DNA of 64,000 bases, taken from Pomacea canaliculata (taxonomy: Eukaryota; Mollusca; Gastropoda; Architaenioglossa; Ampullariidae). The stretch covers positions 4,142,227 to 4,206,226 of the forward strand of contig NC_037595.1 in NCBI RefSeq assembly GCF_003073045.1. The letters are read 5' to 3'. Shown one piece after another: positions 27,775 through 36,700 of the stretch. Within the stretch, counting starts at the first letter, position 1; every line of letters starts with the position of its first letter. The notes beneath the pieces were generated by a model, which saw nothing but the letters and a program-made list of their open reading frames with translations, was not told the origin of the DNA and searched no databases. The position numbers were made by a program, and so were the translations under genes.

Positions 27775-30700
27775 ATGGCGCTGCACGTACCACGCGCACC
27801 GGGCTTTGCCCAAATGCTTAAAGACGGTGCAAGGGTAAGAGACAAGGCTGTATTTTACCATATCGCAATCTAGTATATTCTTTATACAGAAAATGCTCCA
27901 TTTTGATCTCATCTGTTGTTAATAAGTCAAAGATGGTCAAGCTCCATTCGGCCCACGAGGTTGCCATGCCCGCACCATTCCACAAGCTCGAGAATATTCT
28001 CCAGCGAACAATGTTGGAACGAAGTGCGATTGGGAAGGGATGAATTGTGCCAAGAATTATGTCGATATATTTTGATAATACTTAAATTTGTCGATTTGGA
28101 CTTGGAGGAGTGTGCAAATGCCATCTTTGGTCACCCACGGTTCCTGAAAGTTGTAACTGACCAAGACGACAACGCTCGATTTTGGAAAGAGCATACTCAT
28201 TATCGCAATGTGCAAGGATATGTAACCACATTCGAGATGAATCACGTATTCAAGAAGAACTGAAGAAGATGGGGCCTATCTTTTCAATGTTTATTATGAA
28301 AACTTATCATTTTATGTAATCTTTATAGTTTATGACAAACTCAGCTACCTTTTGTGACACATTGTAACAATGACTCAGCTTTGGTAGCATAAAAAAAAAA
28401 AAAACAGTAGCTCAAACTTACATTTTTAAGGCAACAGCAAATATGGATAGTCTGTGTAATGTGACATTTCTACTCAACCGTTTTTCTGGAGTGAATGGGG
28501 GGGTGGTGGTTGACAAAGGTTGAAATGAAATTGATATACAATGGCTAGACAATAAGCTGTGATATTTTTTAATGCTATTTTGGTACATTGCAAGCAAGAA
28601 CATTATAACTAAGTTATTTGTAAAAGGTTCTTGCTCATCCCCCGAATTGGCGGGGGGGGGGGGGTCTTTCTTTAATGCTATTACTGTTCCAGTGAACTGT
28701 AAAGTGTTAAGGGTCATTTCCAAAAGCTGATGAAGATACCATGATAAATTTGAACATACTGATACTCTTGATAAATTTTGTTATTACACTCTTATAGTGT
28801 TTTATAATTTTTTTTTTACAGTGGCTAATCAGCTGTTTTATATCACATTAATTTTTTCCAGCATTTTTCTGGTCTTGAGGAGGCTATCTTTAGGAATATT
28901 GGGGCCTGCAAAGAACTGGCTAAAACAACTAGATCAGCTTATGGTCCTCATGGTAAGACCTTGTAGTCAGTAGCTTGTGAATTTCTTTAAAACCAGCATT
29001 TTTTTTTTTTTCTTGTTTTGCCCTTGTATTTCTGAGTTACTTGTAATATTTTGCCCTCTCAATACTTATGCATTAAAACATTCTGTGTGAAGTCAATACA
29101 TTGTGTTGGCTGTAACTTCACCATGTGGAAAATCGTGTACATAACTCTTTACATTACAGGACAAAACAAAATGGTTATCAACCATTTGGAAAAGCTTTTT
29201 GTCACCAATGATGCAGCCACTATTCTTCGAGAGCTTGAAGTTGAACACCCTGCTGCTAAAATGCTTGTGATGGCAGCACAACAGCAAGAACAGGAATGCG
29301 GGGATGGGACAAATTTTGTGCTTGTATTTGGTGGAACTCTTTTGGAGAGTGCAGAAGAGCTTTTACGAATGGTGAGCCCACTTAACTGGCAGGGTACTTT
29401 GTCAGTACTGTTATTTATTTGTGATCTTAAGTGCATTTATTAAGGCATGTAAAGCTGTTTTAAAGTACTAGATATGCATTCTTTAACAGATTACCAGCCT
29501 GGTTTTCCTTTTAGTGTGTATAGCTTGACATCTGAAGCAAATGTGCTCCCTGGTGTTTAGTTCCCTCATAACATAGTATTGATTTTTTTTATATCTATTT
29601 ATACTTCATGTCCACCTTAAGGCAATAGGCTGTGGTTTACATAGCATTGTGGTGATTGTTAGGACTGAATAGTTTAAACCAGGGATGCCCAACCTACGGC
29701 CCGTGGGCCATATCCGGCCTGCGAAACTTCTGTCCACAGTGCAGGAAATCGGCATGTTAGTAATAAAAAAAGACCTACAAAAACGGGGGGAAAAAAAGGG
29801 AAGAAGAAGTATTTATCCCTACTTAGGGGAGTCTCTCAATCTTTTTTTTCGATGGATGAACATTTCGATTCAGTTCTCCGACTTGGTGTCTCTACGATGC
29901 AGCCGGACATTCAGAAGTTGGTTTCGGGTAAACAACTTCAAATATCCCACTAATTACTACATAATTAATGGTAAGTACAACTTGTCTCTAATAAAAATGG
30001 TATCTGCTCTATTTTTTTTTTATTTTTTTTTTTTTTGTATTTTTGCGGTGAAGCGGCCCATGACACGCATGTCGGAAATGTGTATGGCGTATGGCCCCCA
30101 GGCCAAAAAAAGGTTGGGCATCACTGGTTTAAACATTGTAACAACCATGGGGAGGGTCTGATGGTTTGTGTTTGTAAAGCTTGTTTGCTGGTTCCCAGGC
30201 CTACTTAGGTCTTTGGCTCCAAAGCTCCATCTCCCACCCAACCTGTGGTTAAGGAAGTTAAAGATAGCAGAAGAAAAGGGAAGGGTTCTAATTCTGGGCA
30301 ATATGGGCAATTATTAATAACAATGGAAGTTGCTAGTTCCGTTGTGATGCAACATTAACATTTGAGCATGTGTCAGAGCTTTTGGTTTTATTATTATTAC
30401 CTAGTGGAAACTGAAAATGTTGGGCAAAAGCACATAACTCATGTGTCTGCTTTATTCTATAGGCATGTCACTTGGTAGCCTGTGCTAAAGAGACTCGTCC
30501 AGTGTTAAGTCATTTCTTGTTTTATATATTTATACATATGTATGAGCAAGAAAAATCTTGATCTTGGAAACATTTGCTTTATAGTGGTCTGTATTGTTTA
30601 GCCGGGGACTAATGCTGTTCTATACTGTGTGACAATGTTTCTGTAGCCTGGTAGTGTACATAAATCATTCAGAAGCTGTACACTAATGGCTTTATGAATG

Positions 30701-33700
30701 TGTTCAAACAAAAGTTTAAAAATATATATTTATGTTCAGTATATGCTTTTAGCAATAACACTACACTTTGCTTAGTTTAGATAATTCTTAGATTGAATCT
30801 AAAAGATTCATATTCAAAATCACCATATTGGTTAAAACACCACTTTGGAGATCTGATATTTATGGAATTTCTAGTAGGTAGAGATAATATTGATACATTC
30901 TGTAAATTTCAGCATCTAAAATGCAACTATTATTAATTTCAGAATTGGCAATTTCCACCTGTAATCAACAGGTACAAAGTATATGCTAAAGCACATAACT
31001 CAGGTGTCCGCTTGTTTTTATGGGCGTGTCATTTGGTAGCCTGTGCAAAAATGATGCATCCTTGGTTGTCATGTCCTTCATTTTTTTATGTGAACAAGAC
31101 AAATCCTAATCTTGGACACATTTGCTTAGTTTGAAAATGATATTTTGCCAAATTGGTATGGACTAAGAGGCAAATTTCACTTGTTCAGATGTTAACTTGT
31201 TTACGTTGATTGTTAATGTTTGTTATAAGGATTACAGCTGTGTGACAGGGGCAAATTGAACTGCAGGGTAATGATGACAGCGCAGTGTTTTGTTTCTATG
31301 AGTTGGAAGATAGAGATTGCTTTGTAGGTTAACGCACATAACTCAGGTGTCTGCTGGTTTTAATGGGCATGTCACTTGGTAGCCTGTGCTAAAAAGACTC
31401 GTCCAGTGTTAAGTCATTTCTTGTTTGATATATTTATATATATGTATGAGCAAGAGAAATCTTAATCTTGGAAACATTTGTTTAATGTGGTCTGTATTGT
31501 TTAGCCGGGGACTAATGCTGTTCTATACTGTGTGACAATGTTTCTTAGGCCTGGTAGTGGATGCAATGAGTATACATGGACAAAACTGAACATATGCTTA
31601 TTGAATCTTAAACAGAATCTCCATTTTTGTATTTTCATATTATAAATGTAGTTTTGCATTTATATAGTTTTAACCCCAGTAGCAGTGACAGCTGTGGTTG
31701 AAATTAGGTTGTGAAAATTAGCACACTGACCTTGCAGAACACAAGAAAATTGTGGACTAAAGTATCTAATTCAGATGTCTTCTCAGCAAAACAGATCTTA
31801 GTCTTGGACCCATTTGTTTAGTGTGATGTTTTGGCAACTTATGTCATAAAGTTTTGCTGATTAGCAATTGTTAGTAAAGTGAAGCTTCTACGGATGGAAT
31901 CACATTCTGACCTAGCAGAATGCATACAAAAATTGTAGGTTAAAGCACATAACTCAGGTGTCTGTTTATTTCTATGGGCATGTCACTTGGTAGCCTGTGC
32001 AAAAATAATCTGTCAAGTATTTGAGTTTCATCTTGTTTTGTATATGAGCAAGACTAATCTTAATCTTGGACACAGTTTTTTTTGATGTGTAATCTGAATG
32101 TCTTGTAGGTAAGGGAAAACAAATTTAACAGGAAGCTTATAATAATGTGTCACACAAAACCTATTTTCAGCATTTCTTTCTTGTAATGTATCTGGTTTGA
32201 ATAAAAGTGGATTTGCTGCTTATTTATATGGGTTTCAAATGACTGTTAGCGGTACTATTCTTTGGCTTAAATATTGAAATGTTTTTTCAGGGTCTGTCTG
32301 TGACTGAAGTGATCGAAGGCTACGAACTAGCAAATAAGAAGGCACAGGAGATCCTTCCTAGTAAGTGTGGTTTACATTATGTTTTCTTTGTTAGAAGAGA
32401 ACATTTTTCCACTAGCTTTTAATCTAATGTACTTTCAAGTGTTCATCAATTGTCGGTTTTCATAAACATTTTGCCATTAGATGAAATGTGCAGTAAAGCA
32501 GTCTTTGTAATAATGTGGTTACATTACATTTTTTTCCCACAGTTTCTTTGATAATTTACTTAGTATCCTGTAAACGTTTTTTAATTTAAAAAAAGGAGAG
32601 AGGGCGGTGATAGATGCACTTAAAGTGTGCTTTACAACCATACAGCTATAAGTCATGTTATTGTGATTATTTAATAATGTAGGAGCTTCTTGCTTCTTTA
32701 CTTGCTGGTCCTGTGGAAACTTAAAAACAAGTAATAAGAGTACAAAATACAGATGTTTATGTATATGACATTTGGTGACCTGTGGTACAGTAAGCCAGCC
32801 AATCCTTGCTAAGTTGTGTTGAAATTCACATGGTGTTTGACACTACCAGTTGCGCACAGATTTATGTATAAAAAATGCTGTAGCTAAATGTGTAGACTTT
32901 TTTTTTGTGACTGTCATGTAGTAACAAGCAGATTTCAATACTGAATATTTCAGCTTTAGTTGTTGGAGAAGTGAAGAACATGAGAAGCAAGGAGGAAGTA
33001 AAAAGTTCTGTTCGCACATCTGTTATGAGCAAGCAGTATGGAAATGAAGATTTCTTGGCAGATCTTATTATCAATGCTTGTGGTAAGTCAACGCATTCTT
33101 CTGTTGATTTGTGGGAATTGGGAGGGAATAGATTGGTTTTTAACAAATGGGTGTGAAAAGGAGAAGTTCAAATAGTCATTCCTTTTATCCCATGCATTGA
33201 AAGTTGATGTATGTATTTTAAGAATTCATCAATTGTCTCTGTGAAATTTCAACCACTGATGGGTAGTCAGAATTTATTTAAATGTTTCAGCAAAAGTCTA
33301 CCTCACAGTCTGAAGCACTGCACATGCTGATAATGGTAATGACACAATTCCAATTGTTTCAGTTTCAGTGCTGACTTCTAAGATCTCTTTTAACGTGGAC
33401 AATGTCAGAGTGTGCAAAATTTTGGTGAGGACCTTTATGTTTGACTTACTTTCTGATTGTGATGTAATTGGCTATGGATATTAAGTTAAAATTGAGTGAG
33501 ATTTAATTGTTTCTTTTTTTAAATAGTGAGAGAATATGCATCACAATATTTTTTTCAAGGAATCGATCTTTTGTGCCTTTTTTTTTTTTTCTTTCTTTAA
33601 TTAAGCCTATAAGAGGTTGTGCAATAAAGCTGTATTGCTGGGTTCACTTTTGAACTGTTTGAATTACATCCACTCTGGCTTCTAGATGTGTTGACTTGTG

Positions 33701-36700
33701 ATAAGGGCCAGCTAACTGCCAGTACTTTTTTTTTCTAGGGTTCTGGTGTACTGCAAAGTGAAGTGGTGCAAGGCATGGTCTTTAAGAGACAGGTAGAAGG
33801 AGATGTCACCAAAGTAAACAAGGCCAAGATAGCTATATTTTCTTGTCCTCTTGATGCCATGCAGACAGAAACAAAGGTATTAATACAAGGCCACTTTCCA
33901 CTCTTTCTGGCATCCATTTTATCTTTTTTATATTTTTGGTTTGTAAAAGTAGATATCTGAAATGTTAAAAATTGTTAATTAGACCTCTTAAAATCAGGTA
34001 AATTATGCATCTGTTTACATGAGTAGAGGTCTTCTATCTTTTCATCTACTTTTTTTGTTTCTATTACAAATCTTACATTGTGCTTGGGTTCTTGCTTTGT
34101 ATTAACGACCTTTTTAGATGCAGCTCTAGTGCCTGATTTTAAGAGACATGGTAATTTGCAAGGTGAAACTTGATGTACAGTTATGTGTTTCATAGGGTAC
34201 GGTGCTGATCAAAAATGCAGAGGAACTCATGTCATTCAGCAAAGGAGAAGAGAACCTGATGGAGCAGGTAAAGATATCTGCAGCTTACGACCAGTCAGTG
34301 GATTTTTAAATATTTTGTTTAACCCTGCCATAGCTTCATTACATTCATCTTCTTTTGCACCTTGCTATTTTCTCTCTTCAGACTTCAGCCCTAAAGCCTT
34401 TGAACACACAATTTTCAGAGGGGTAGAGGTTGACCATCTCAGCAGTTCTTGAGATAAAACTGGAAGCCAGCATGTGGCAGCAACCTATCAAAAATAGTAA
34501 TTGATGCTAGGAAATCACCTGTGTCCTTCGCAGTAGTGTCGTGTGGGTTTTAAAGTAAGCAGTGTCAGCATATGCTGTGCAGTGCAACATGGGGATGCTA
34601 CAGCTGCTGCAGAGAAATTAGTGCACGAGTTCCAAGAACTTATTATTAGTGAGTTAACCTATATCACAGCAGAGGAGAAATCTTTGCCTGGCCAGAAACC
34701 AATGAAGGATATACCCTCCTGCTCTGTGCCAAATCAAATCAAATCAGATCAGACTTTATTGTCTGTCGAGGAGACCCAAGACAGAAATTTTTCTTTTGCT
34801 GACAAGGGCAGGCATACATACTCATACAGACATTTACACACACAGTAAAACACACAGTTAGGAGTAAATGGAAGTGCAAGTGGAGATTAGAAAATCAAGC
34901 CACAGCTCATCTGCCACTAAGAGAATCCACGAGTTTTCATTGTTCTTTGTTAGAAAATTACTGCATAAAATATTATATTAATTGATTTTTATGTTGACAT
35001 TTTTTGGGCGTGGAACAGACTAATTGGATTTGTATTATTTTAAATGGGAAAATTTGCTTTGAGTTACAAACCGGGTTTTTTCAGGTGGGGGAGGAGACTT
35101 GTTTAGCACATGTTGCATTTGAGTATTAAATGCATCATTGGTTTCTTTTTTGTGCAGTATATCAAAGGCATTGTAGATGCTGGTGTGAATGTGATTGTGA
35201 CTGGAGGAAAGGTTGGAGACCTTGCGCAACATTATTGCAACAAGTACAAAGTTCTGGTTGTTCGGCTCACGTCAAAATGGGACCTTCGTCGACTATGTAA
35301 AGCTGTTGGTGCTACTGCTTTACCCAAAATAGTAGGTTGTTTTTTGTTGGTTTTTTTTTATTATTATTTTTTTTTTTTTAAGTGCTTTCTGTTAATGATT
35401 TTTGTTGGGGTCTTTTGTGGCTTTTTGGGTCTGGAGTATGCACCTCAAGTGCACAGACATGAGCTACTGTTTCATGCAAGTAAGTCTAGTTGTCTGTTTT
35501 ATTTTAAAAGTCAAATATATGCAAGTGGCAGGAAAATCTTTTAGCAGTTTTGATTTACTCCCAACATTATAATTCTTTACCATTTTTTCAGACAACACCA
35601 AGAACAGAAGAATGCGGCCACTGTGACAATGTATATGTTGATGAAATAGGGGAAACATCTGTTGTAGTCTTCAAGCAGGGTAAGTGTATTGGTGATGCAG
35701 AAGGCATGGAGAGATAAATGTCATTATTTATAATCTAGTGCCTGATATTAATGGCAGAATAAATGTTGCTAGCCTGTTATGCAGTGTGCTATTTGAGCTA
35801 GCTAGCAGTTAAGCAGTATTTGATTATTAAGATTATTTGTACTTGATGGAATTATCGGATTTTTTTTTTCTTTTTTAGACAAAGATGAGAACCCTATCAC
35901 AACTATTATCATAAGAGGATCGTCTGAGAACATCATGGACGATATTGAAAGGGCTGTGGATGATGGTGTCAACACATTTAAAGCTCTTACAAAGGTAGTC
36001 TACAATTGTTCATTTTACGTTACAGGGAACTTAGCACTCATTCAGTGTTATATAATTTAAGTTTGATTCCACTTATATAGACAATAAATTGGAAAAGATT
36101 TTTTAATGACTTATCCACTCCCAGTTGGTCAGACCTGATCAATAAACAGGAAAAACAAATTTGACCAACTCACCCCAGCCCCAGCTTTACACAGTTGACA
36201 TGTGTTAGCTACCTTGTTTCTGTGTTCACATGGATACGCCATGTGTGGCATGTGAAGTCTTCTGCTATCAAATATGTTCACTGTACCAACTGCTGGTCCT
36301 GCATATCTAAATATCCAGGTGTAGTCTGTGCATGTGTGGGGATTTTAGTGATGCATGCACACTATTGCAAGACGTTATGTTTCGTGTAAATCTTCAGGTG
36401 TGCCTTGATGGATTAAACATTTTCTAGTTTTTATTTATCAAAGCCAGCTCAAATCATGTGAGTAGTGTAATTTTGCTTTTGCAATGTTTTATTTCATGTT
36501 TTTTTGTGATGTTTTGTCCTTTACGCTTATTTCGAATACTTCATGCACGTGCGCAGACTCTACCCAGAGATTCAGTTAGTGCCTGAAGATTTGGTTTTGT
36601 TAACACATGCCTGTGAGAGAGCTATTGGGGAAGGGGTCAAATTGGTCAAATTTTTTTGTTCACCATTTTTATTGGTCAAGTCAGACCAGTCAGGAGTGGG

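What the first reader, a model, noticed from the sequence alone, without database searches (positions are those of the whole stretch)
30430..32077. Undescribed family of H/ACA-type small RNAs amplified in one intron of CCT8
Seen: four sense-strand copies (30430-30575, 30991-31123, 31334-31479, 31945-32077) share GCACATAACTCAGGTGTC, GCATGTCACTTGGTAGCCTG and TCTTGGA near the end, while the DNA between copies is mostly unrelated. Each starts and closes a first hairpin (GCACA/TGTGC), has an ANANNA hinge in three of four copies, a second hairpin, and ends ACA plus three bases. In copy A the second upper stem is a perfect 7 bp (TTTCTTG/CAAGAAA), and the distance from stem to ACA is 16 nt. Known: H/ACA RNAs guide pseudouridylation with dyskerin, often sit singly in introns of highly expressed housekeeping genes, and vertebrate chaperonin genes (TCP1, CCT6A) host such RNAs. 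Inference: this is a lineage-specific family; the multiplicity within one intron is unusual.
Basis: partly seen in the sequence, partly recalled or inferred. Interest (0 to 1): 0.75.

Follow-up and report, generated by a model that had tools for sequence, protein, structure and literature searches.

The report
Four ribosomal-RNA guide genes, one intron
One intron of a chaperonin gene holds four related copies of what look like small guide RNAs that mark one spot on the large ribosomal RNA, and their guide sequence fits this genome's own version of that spot better than the usual one.

Summary
In detail: four sense-strand copies lie at the stated places in one CCT8 intron (29372-32290), and a genome-wide DNA search found no others. 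A fifth, decayed copy lies near 31709-31826. They are very probably intronic H/ACA guide RNAs, but not of a wholly unknown kind: all four align with SNORA30/SNORA37 (RF00415), far below its cut-off (18.6-23.4 against 90 bits), and share its 5' pocket. SNORA30/37 guide pseudouridine 4643 of human 28S, helix 97 (passages). In the 5' hairpin 26 of 26 stem-and-pocket columns are invariant, against 19 of 30 apical ones.

The 25 helix-97 sequences found in this genome differ from the usual one at two positions. Both changes pair with the guide: 13 Watson-Crick pairs in pocket geometry, 0 of 2000 shuffles as good. One change had been noted as the guide's preference beforehand. But those 25 are 28S-end repeats; no intact 28S was found, and there are no expression data.

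The unusual part is four H/ACA genes in one animal intron, grown by tandem duplication.

The parts
29372..32290 (+). Host intron of CCT8, between exons ending at 29371 and starting at 32291
   Evidence: Splice sites read; flanking exon pieces hit CCT theta
30430..30575 (+). Copy A: H/ACA-like RNA of 146 nt; no exact ANANNA hinge; ACA at 30570-30572
   Evidence: not found by either of my H/ACA grammars
30991..31123 (+). Copy B: H/ACA-like RNA of 133 nt; hinge AAAUGA 31049-31054; ACA at 31118-31120
   Evidence: rank 34 of 334 in the relaxed grammar
31334..31479 (+). Copy C: H/ACA-like RNA of 146 nt; hinge AAAAGA 31392-31397; ACA at 31474-31476
   Evidence: First of 6 hits of the strict grammar in the window, both strands; rank 4 of 334 in the relaxed one
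31945..32077 (+). Copy D: H/ACA-like RNA of 133 nt; hinge AAAUAA 32003-32008; ACA at 32072-32074
   Evidence: ranks 12 and 13 of 334 in the relaxed grammar, in another register
31709..31826 (+). Fifth copy, decayed by an internal deletion that took the 5' pocket
   Evidence: 67% over 57 nt; 83% over 41 nt; upstream flank shared with D; only 15.2 bits, E 0.59, with my model
30438..30441 (+). Left guide CUCA of copy A (same in B 30999-31002, C 31342-31345, D 31953-31956)
   Evidence: Invariant in four copies; pairs UGAG of the 28S-end repeat
30473..30481 (+). Right guide UGGUAGCCU of copy A (same in B 31034-31042, C 31377-31385, D 31988-31996)
   Evidence: Invariant in four copies; pairs AGGCUACCA of the 28S-end repeat
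30576..30656 (+). Flank duplicated together with copy A; its partner is 31480-31559 behind copy C
31901..31944 (+). Upstream flank of copy D, shared with the fifth copy
   Evidence: 0 of 200 shuffles as good

Best explanation
The four copies are paralogous intronic box H/ACA guide RNAs released from the CCT8 pre-mRNA. Their conserved 5' pocket directs dyskerin to one uridine in helix 97 of 28S rRNA (GGCUACCA[U]CUGAG), the counterpart of the site that SNORA30/SNORA37 guide in human (28S-Psi4643). The array grew by tandem duplication and unequal recombination inside the intron. Shown by computation: the copies, their confinement to this intron, the folds (convincing for C, moderate for the others), the invariant pocket, and the complementarity to 28S-end repeats of the same genome. 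Inferred: expression, dyskerin binding, the modification, that the living 28S carries the same two changes as the repeats, and that this U corresponds to human U4643. The 3' pocket is less constrained; in A, B and C it may guide a second U 10 nt downstream (weak).
For: Only these 4 places in the genome. Full-length sense matches of all four to RF00415 at a relaxed threshold, three of them ending at the predicted ACA+3. 26 of 26 stem-and-pocket columns invariant against 19 of 30 apical columns, Fisher p = 4e-4. All four fold better than shuffles (z -2.05 to -4.42). 9+4 Watson-Crick pairs to this genome's helix-97 sequence, 0 of 2000 shuffles as good; the preference for UGAG was written down before that sequence was seen. 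Relative to SNORA30's consensus, two guide changes meet two target changes.
Against: All RF00415 scores are far below cut-off, and B's match ends 19 nt short of its predicted end. A lacks an exact hinge box; A, B and D fail the strict grammar, A also the relaxed one. A's unconstrained fold does not form the 5' basal stem. Stem covariation is not significant (one pair; 118 of 500 shuffles reach it). The 25 target sequences are 28S-end repeats, not rDNA, which was not found. Against ordinary eukaryotic 28S the pairing is only 7+2 or 7+1. No expression data.
Confidence: 0.8

Rival explanations
1. One copy is a working guide and the others are decaying passengers of tandem duplication.
For: Duplicated flanks; a fifth copy is plainly decayed; A lacks the exact hinge box, and only C passes the strict grammar.
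Against: The 5' stem-and-pocket columns are invariant in all four copies, 26 of 26, although other parts have diverged; A and C are recent relatives, so this rests mainly on B, D and the A/C pair.
Confidence: 0.3
2. The intron yields one long RNA of about 1.65 kb capped by H/ACA particles at A and D (sno-lncRNA) rather than, or besides, four small RNAs.
For: Two snoRNAs in one intron can give such RNAs, including an H/ACA one (passages).
Against: No RNA data; few intron pairs gave a detected sno-lncRNA in the paper seen (passages).
Confidence: 0.12
3. An unrelated repeat or SINE family with chance H/ACA resemblance.
For: Several similar copies close together.
Against: 4 places in 440 Mb, all in this intron; pocket-specific conservation; 13-pair match to 28S sequence.
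Confidence: 0.03
4. The guide is real but its true target is another RNA; the fit to the helix-97 repeats is coincidence.
For: 18S, the rest of 28S and the snRNAs could not be tested; the 28S found is a repeat.
Against: 0 of 2000 shuffles match as well; the same site is SNORA30's known target region.
Confidence: 0.08

Closest known systems
SNORA30/SNORA37 (Rfam RF00415), guides of human 28S-Psi4643
   Same: Two-hairpin plan, 5' basal stem GCAC/GUGC, right guide UGGUAGC, predicted target in helix 97.
   Different: 18.6-23.4 bits against a cut-off of 90; two guide bases changed, matching two changed target bases; 3' half unlike; four copies in one intron.
SNORA73 (U17) cluster in the same genome
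   Same: Multi-copy H/ACA family at one locus: five copies above cut-off within about 6 kb.
   Different: A recognised family by score; whether its copies share an intron was not settled.
H/ACA sno-lncRNAs (sno-lnc5AC of TBRG4, SLERT)
   Same: More than one H/ACA RNA in one intron (passages).
   Different: Two snoRNA ends, not four units; an RNA product is reported there, none is known here.
Chicken cis-duplicated snoRNAs, e.g. GGgACA4 in PABPC4 introns 6, 7 and 10
   Same: H/ACA copies multiplied within one host gene (PMC2653536 passages).
   Different: Those copies are listed in different introns; here all are in one.

Membership tests
Box H/ACA snoRNA | Two hairpins joined by a hinge | tested here: met
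   (z -3.35, -2.05, -4.42, -2.62 for A-D); with the basal stem forced; clearest in C, and A needs forcing
Box H/ACA snoRNA | Hinge box ANANNA | tested here: inconclusive
   Exact in 3 of 4 copies (B, C, D), absent in A
Box H/ACA snoRNA | ACA three bases before the 3' end | tested here: met
   ACA followed by three bases in 4 of 4 at the conserved end; the ends themselves are predicted, not mapped
Box H/ACA snoRNA | Pocket 14-16 nt before the H and ACA boxes | tested here: inconclusive
   Met by C for both hairpins (15 and 16); A has 16 for the 3' hairpin; B 15-16 for the 3' hairpin; D only at 13 in the best solution
Box H/ACA snoRNA | Pocket complementary to a target uridine | tested here: met
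   9+4 Watson-Crick pairs to the genome's 28S-end repeat, 0 of 2000 shuffles; true rDNA not available
Box H/ACA snoRNA | Bound by dyskerin; stable RNA | not testable with these tools
   No RNA data held
SNORA30/SNORA37 (RF00415) | Score at or above Rfam's cut-off (90 bits) | tested here: not met
   18.6-23.4 bits; none at cut-off in the window
SNORA30/SNORA37 (RF00415) | Same 5' pocket and target site | tested here: met
   UGGUAGC shared; pairs at GCUACCA[U]; that this is human U4643 is inferred
SNORA30/SNORA37 (RF00415) | Common descent | not testable with these tools
   No related genomes held; the 3' halves are unlike
SINE | Dispersed copies in the genome | tested here: not met
   4 places, all in this intron

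The most novel reading that the evidence does not exclude
The spliced CCT8 intron matures as a long RNA of about 1.65 kb with an H/ACA particle at each end and two more inside (a four-guide sno-lncRNA), carrying a guide that has co-evolved with a changed helix 97 of this lineage's 28S rRNA.
Probability: 0.12. Interest if true: 0.65.

Novelty: new member of a known kind. Interest (0 to 1): 0.45.

Why it matters
It offers an apparent case of guide-target co-evolution: two guide bases that differ from SNORA30 match two changed bases of helix 97. It also puts four H/ACA genes in one animal intron, where one snoRNA per intron is described as the rule (PMC11028025 and PMC1821038 passages), and shows flanks that point to tandem duplication, whereas human H/ACA copies are ascribed mostly to retroposition (PMC8178906 passages; chicken copies, though, mostly to intragenic duplication, PMC2653536 passages).

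Tried and rejected
SINE: against it. Retroposition: not favoured, because flanks are duplicated with the RNA. SNORA27 on the minus strand at 31071-31202 (23.7 bits, cut-off 64): taken as chance; it was reported at one place only. Stem covariation as proof: not significant. Genome search with my model R1: not accepted for this genome. Weak R1 hits at 30656-30731, 32740-32815, 36043-36166 and two more on the minus strand: left unproven. A search for further copies of the pocket motif did not complete. 18S gave no usable answer and the 28S family search none either; snRNAs were not searched. RF00415 over the genome: no match at E 0.001, but the tool warns that nothing rang in its 14 controls, so this does not show absence. 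Literature: searches for CCT8 with snoRNA and for several snoRNAs in one intron, fish snoRNAs, SNORA30 and sno-lncRNAs: in the listings seen, no paper on snoRNAs in CCT8; some searches were largely off topic. PMC10324135 and PMC8482216 gave no precedent. All papers were seen as passages or listings, none whole.
Full report
OBSERVATION. The host is CCT8: three of four exon pieces hit chaperonin theta, the fourth (22 aa) hit nothing; CCT theta chains lead the PDB matches. The intron runs from 29372 to 32290. A genome-wide BLAST with copy A returned 4 places, all here. A fifth, internally deleted copy lies near 31709-31826, though my covariance model scores it weakly (15.2 bits, E 0.59).

HOW THE ARRAY GREW. 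A and C share about 80 nt more downstream (94%; 0 of 200 shuffles). D and the fifth copy share about 40 nt upstream (0 of 200). C and D share a short upstream stretch (7 of 200, marginal). A and C differ at 7 of 56 positions in the 5' hairpin but at 2 of 46 and 2 of 32 in the two parts behind the hinge, so C may be a recombinant with a D-like front and an A-like back. A match of the downstream flanks of A and D (score 23, shuffle maximum 22, 0 of 200) is short and out of register; I do not use it. The other flank pairs of the 20 tested showed nothing. Tandem duplication with unequal recombination fits better than retroposition; this history is inference.

ANATOMY. Each copy folds better than dinucleotide shuffles (z -3.35, -2.05, -4.42, -2.62 for A-D; 1, 9, 0 and 3 of 200 shuffles as stable). 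The plan is hairpin, hinge, hairpin, ACA plus three. A relaxed one over 3261 ACA sites gave 334 hits: C 4th, D 12th and 13th in another register, B 34th, A absent. The structure is thus convincing for C and moderate for the rest. A's unconstrained fold lacks the 5' basal stem; with it forced, the 5' hairpin has -15.0 kcal/mol. Compensatory change is one pair (U-A to C-G in B), reached by 118 of 500 shuffles.

WHAT IS CONSERVED. In the 5' hairpin the basal stem and pocket strands are invariant at 26 of 26 columns, the apical part at 19 of 30 (Fisher p = 4e-4; A and C are close relatives, so the copies are not independent). The hinge is invariant at 4 of 12, the left strand of the 3' hairpin at 9 of 25, its right strand at 20 of 25. 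This suits a guide whose 5' pocket is the working part.

RELATION TO SNORA30. No Rfam family reaches its cut-off in the window. At a relaxed threshold the four copies, and no other place in 29400-33000, match SNORA30/SNORA37 (RF00415) over model positions 1-129 on the sense strand, at 23.4 (D), 21.7 (A), 21.4 (B) and 18.6 (C) bits against a cut-off of 90. A, C and D end at the predicted ACA+3; B's match ends 19 nt earlier. The alignments shown (A and D) agree mainly in the 5' hairpin: GCAC and UUGGUAGC..GUGC. SNORA30 and SNORA37 guide human 28S-Psi4643, also numbered 4673 (PMC9941101 passage; PMC12288042 passage, helix 97; the site is in the table of PMC6182160, passage). I say that these RNAs work like SNORA30 and do not file them in RF00415.

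TARGET TEST. A eukaryotic 28S end in a bacterial bin reads GAAGCUACCAUCUGUAGG, and the Rfam LSU consensus agrees in GAAGCUACCAUC. Against these the guide makes 7+2 and 7+1 pairs (the single left pair is not next to the pocket apex). I noted that the left guide would want UGAG. Both differences add pairs: UGGUAGCCU with AGGCUACCA (9) and CUCA with UGAG (4), with the U and one base between. It was the only site of the 392-nt stretch to pass the scan, and 0 of 2000 shuffles did as well. SNORA30's consensus has U and A at the two guide positions where these RNAs have C and U (read). This looks like guide-target covariation; the right-hand change was not predicted in advance.

CAUTION. The 25 sequences are not shown to be rDNA. 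In the three scanned with Rfam, only the last ~390 nt of 28S is present, inside some 2.2-2.3 kb of shared repeat (two pairs compared). None of the stretches fetched around the 25 holds the sarcin-ricin sequence that a true 28S has just upstream, and two patterns for it found nothing in the assembly. The repeat presumably derives from a 28S of this lineage, and the fit of the guide suggests that the living 28S has the same bases; both are inferred.

SECOND POCKET. In the same 392 nt the best site for the 3' pocket of A, B and C is one uridine, 10 nt downstream of the first (5+5, 5+4, 5+5 pairs; 33, 58 and 20 of 2000 shuffles as good). For D, scanned with wider offsets, it ties with another site (902 of 2000). 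18S, the rest of 28S and the snRNAs were not available. The human table passage that I saw lists 4643 and 4659 near here, not this position. A lead only.

SETTING. One snoRNA per intron is described as the rule in animals (PMC11028025 and PMC1821038 passages), though human introns with pairs exist and some give sno-lncRNAs (PMC4234469 passages). Chicken H/ACA RNAs are mostly single, their copies mostly intragenic (PMC2653536 passages); human H/ACA copies are ascribed mostly to retroposition (PMC8178906 passages). The same genome has five SNORA73 places in about 6 kb, all above cut-off, so a known H/ACA family can be found here; RF00415 gave none, which the tool says does not prove absence.

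VERDICT. Very probably H/ACA guides with a known type of target: a divergent counterpart of SNORA30, amplified fourfold in one intron. The kind is known; the arrangement and the apparent co-evolution with 28S are the points of interest. Species, expression and age are unknown.

Noticed in passing
L006-L028: 25 places on contigs C1, C2, C4-C11 and C13: A repeat carries the last ~390 nt of 28S rRNA (Rfam on three of the 25 places); in L028 three units lie 4.5 and 4.3 kb apart. Several lie near the middle of their contigs.
   Followed up: partly
L031 (G000:C4:20528000-20537000): Five SNORA73 (U17) copies above cut-off within about 6 kb; host gene not identified, pieces of a recalled ribosomal protein did not match.
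   Followed up: partly
window 29672-30134: A 24-nt inverted repeat whose ends include GTTTAAAC on both sides, then CAGGGATGCCCAACCT-like termini: looks like a short hAT-type element with an 8-bp target duplication (the hAT label is recalled).
   Followed up: no
window 32740-32815: A weak match to the array's model in the next intron (16.6 bits, E 0.32) with CATTTGGTGACCTGTG; perhaps a very old copy, perhaps chance.
   Followed up: no
L005 (JADGCD010000183.1, 1-324): A eukaryotic 28S end in a contig binned as a Nitrospinota bacterium: contamination of that bin.
   Followed up: no
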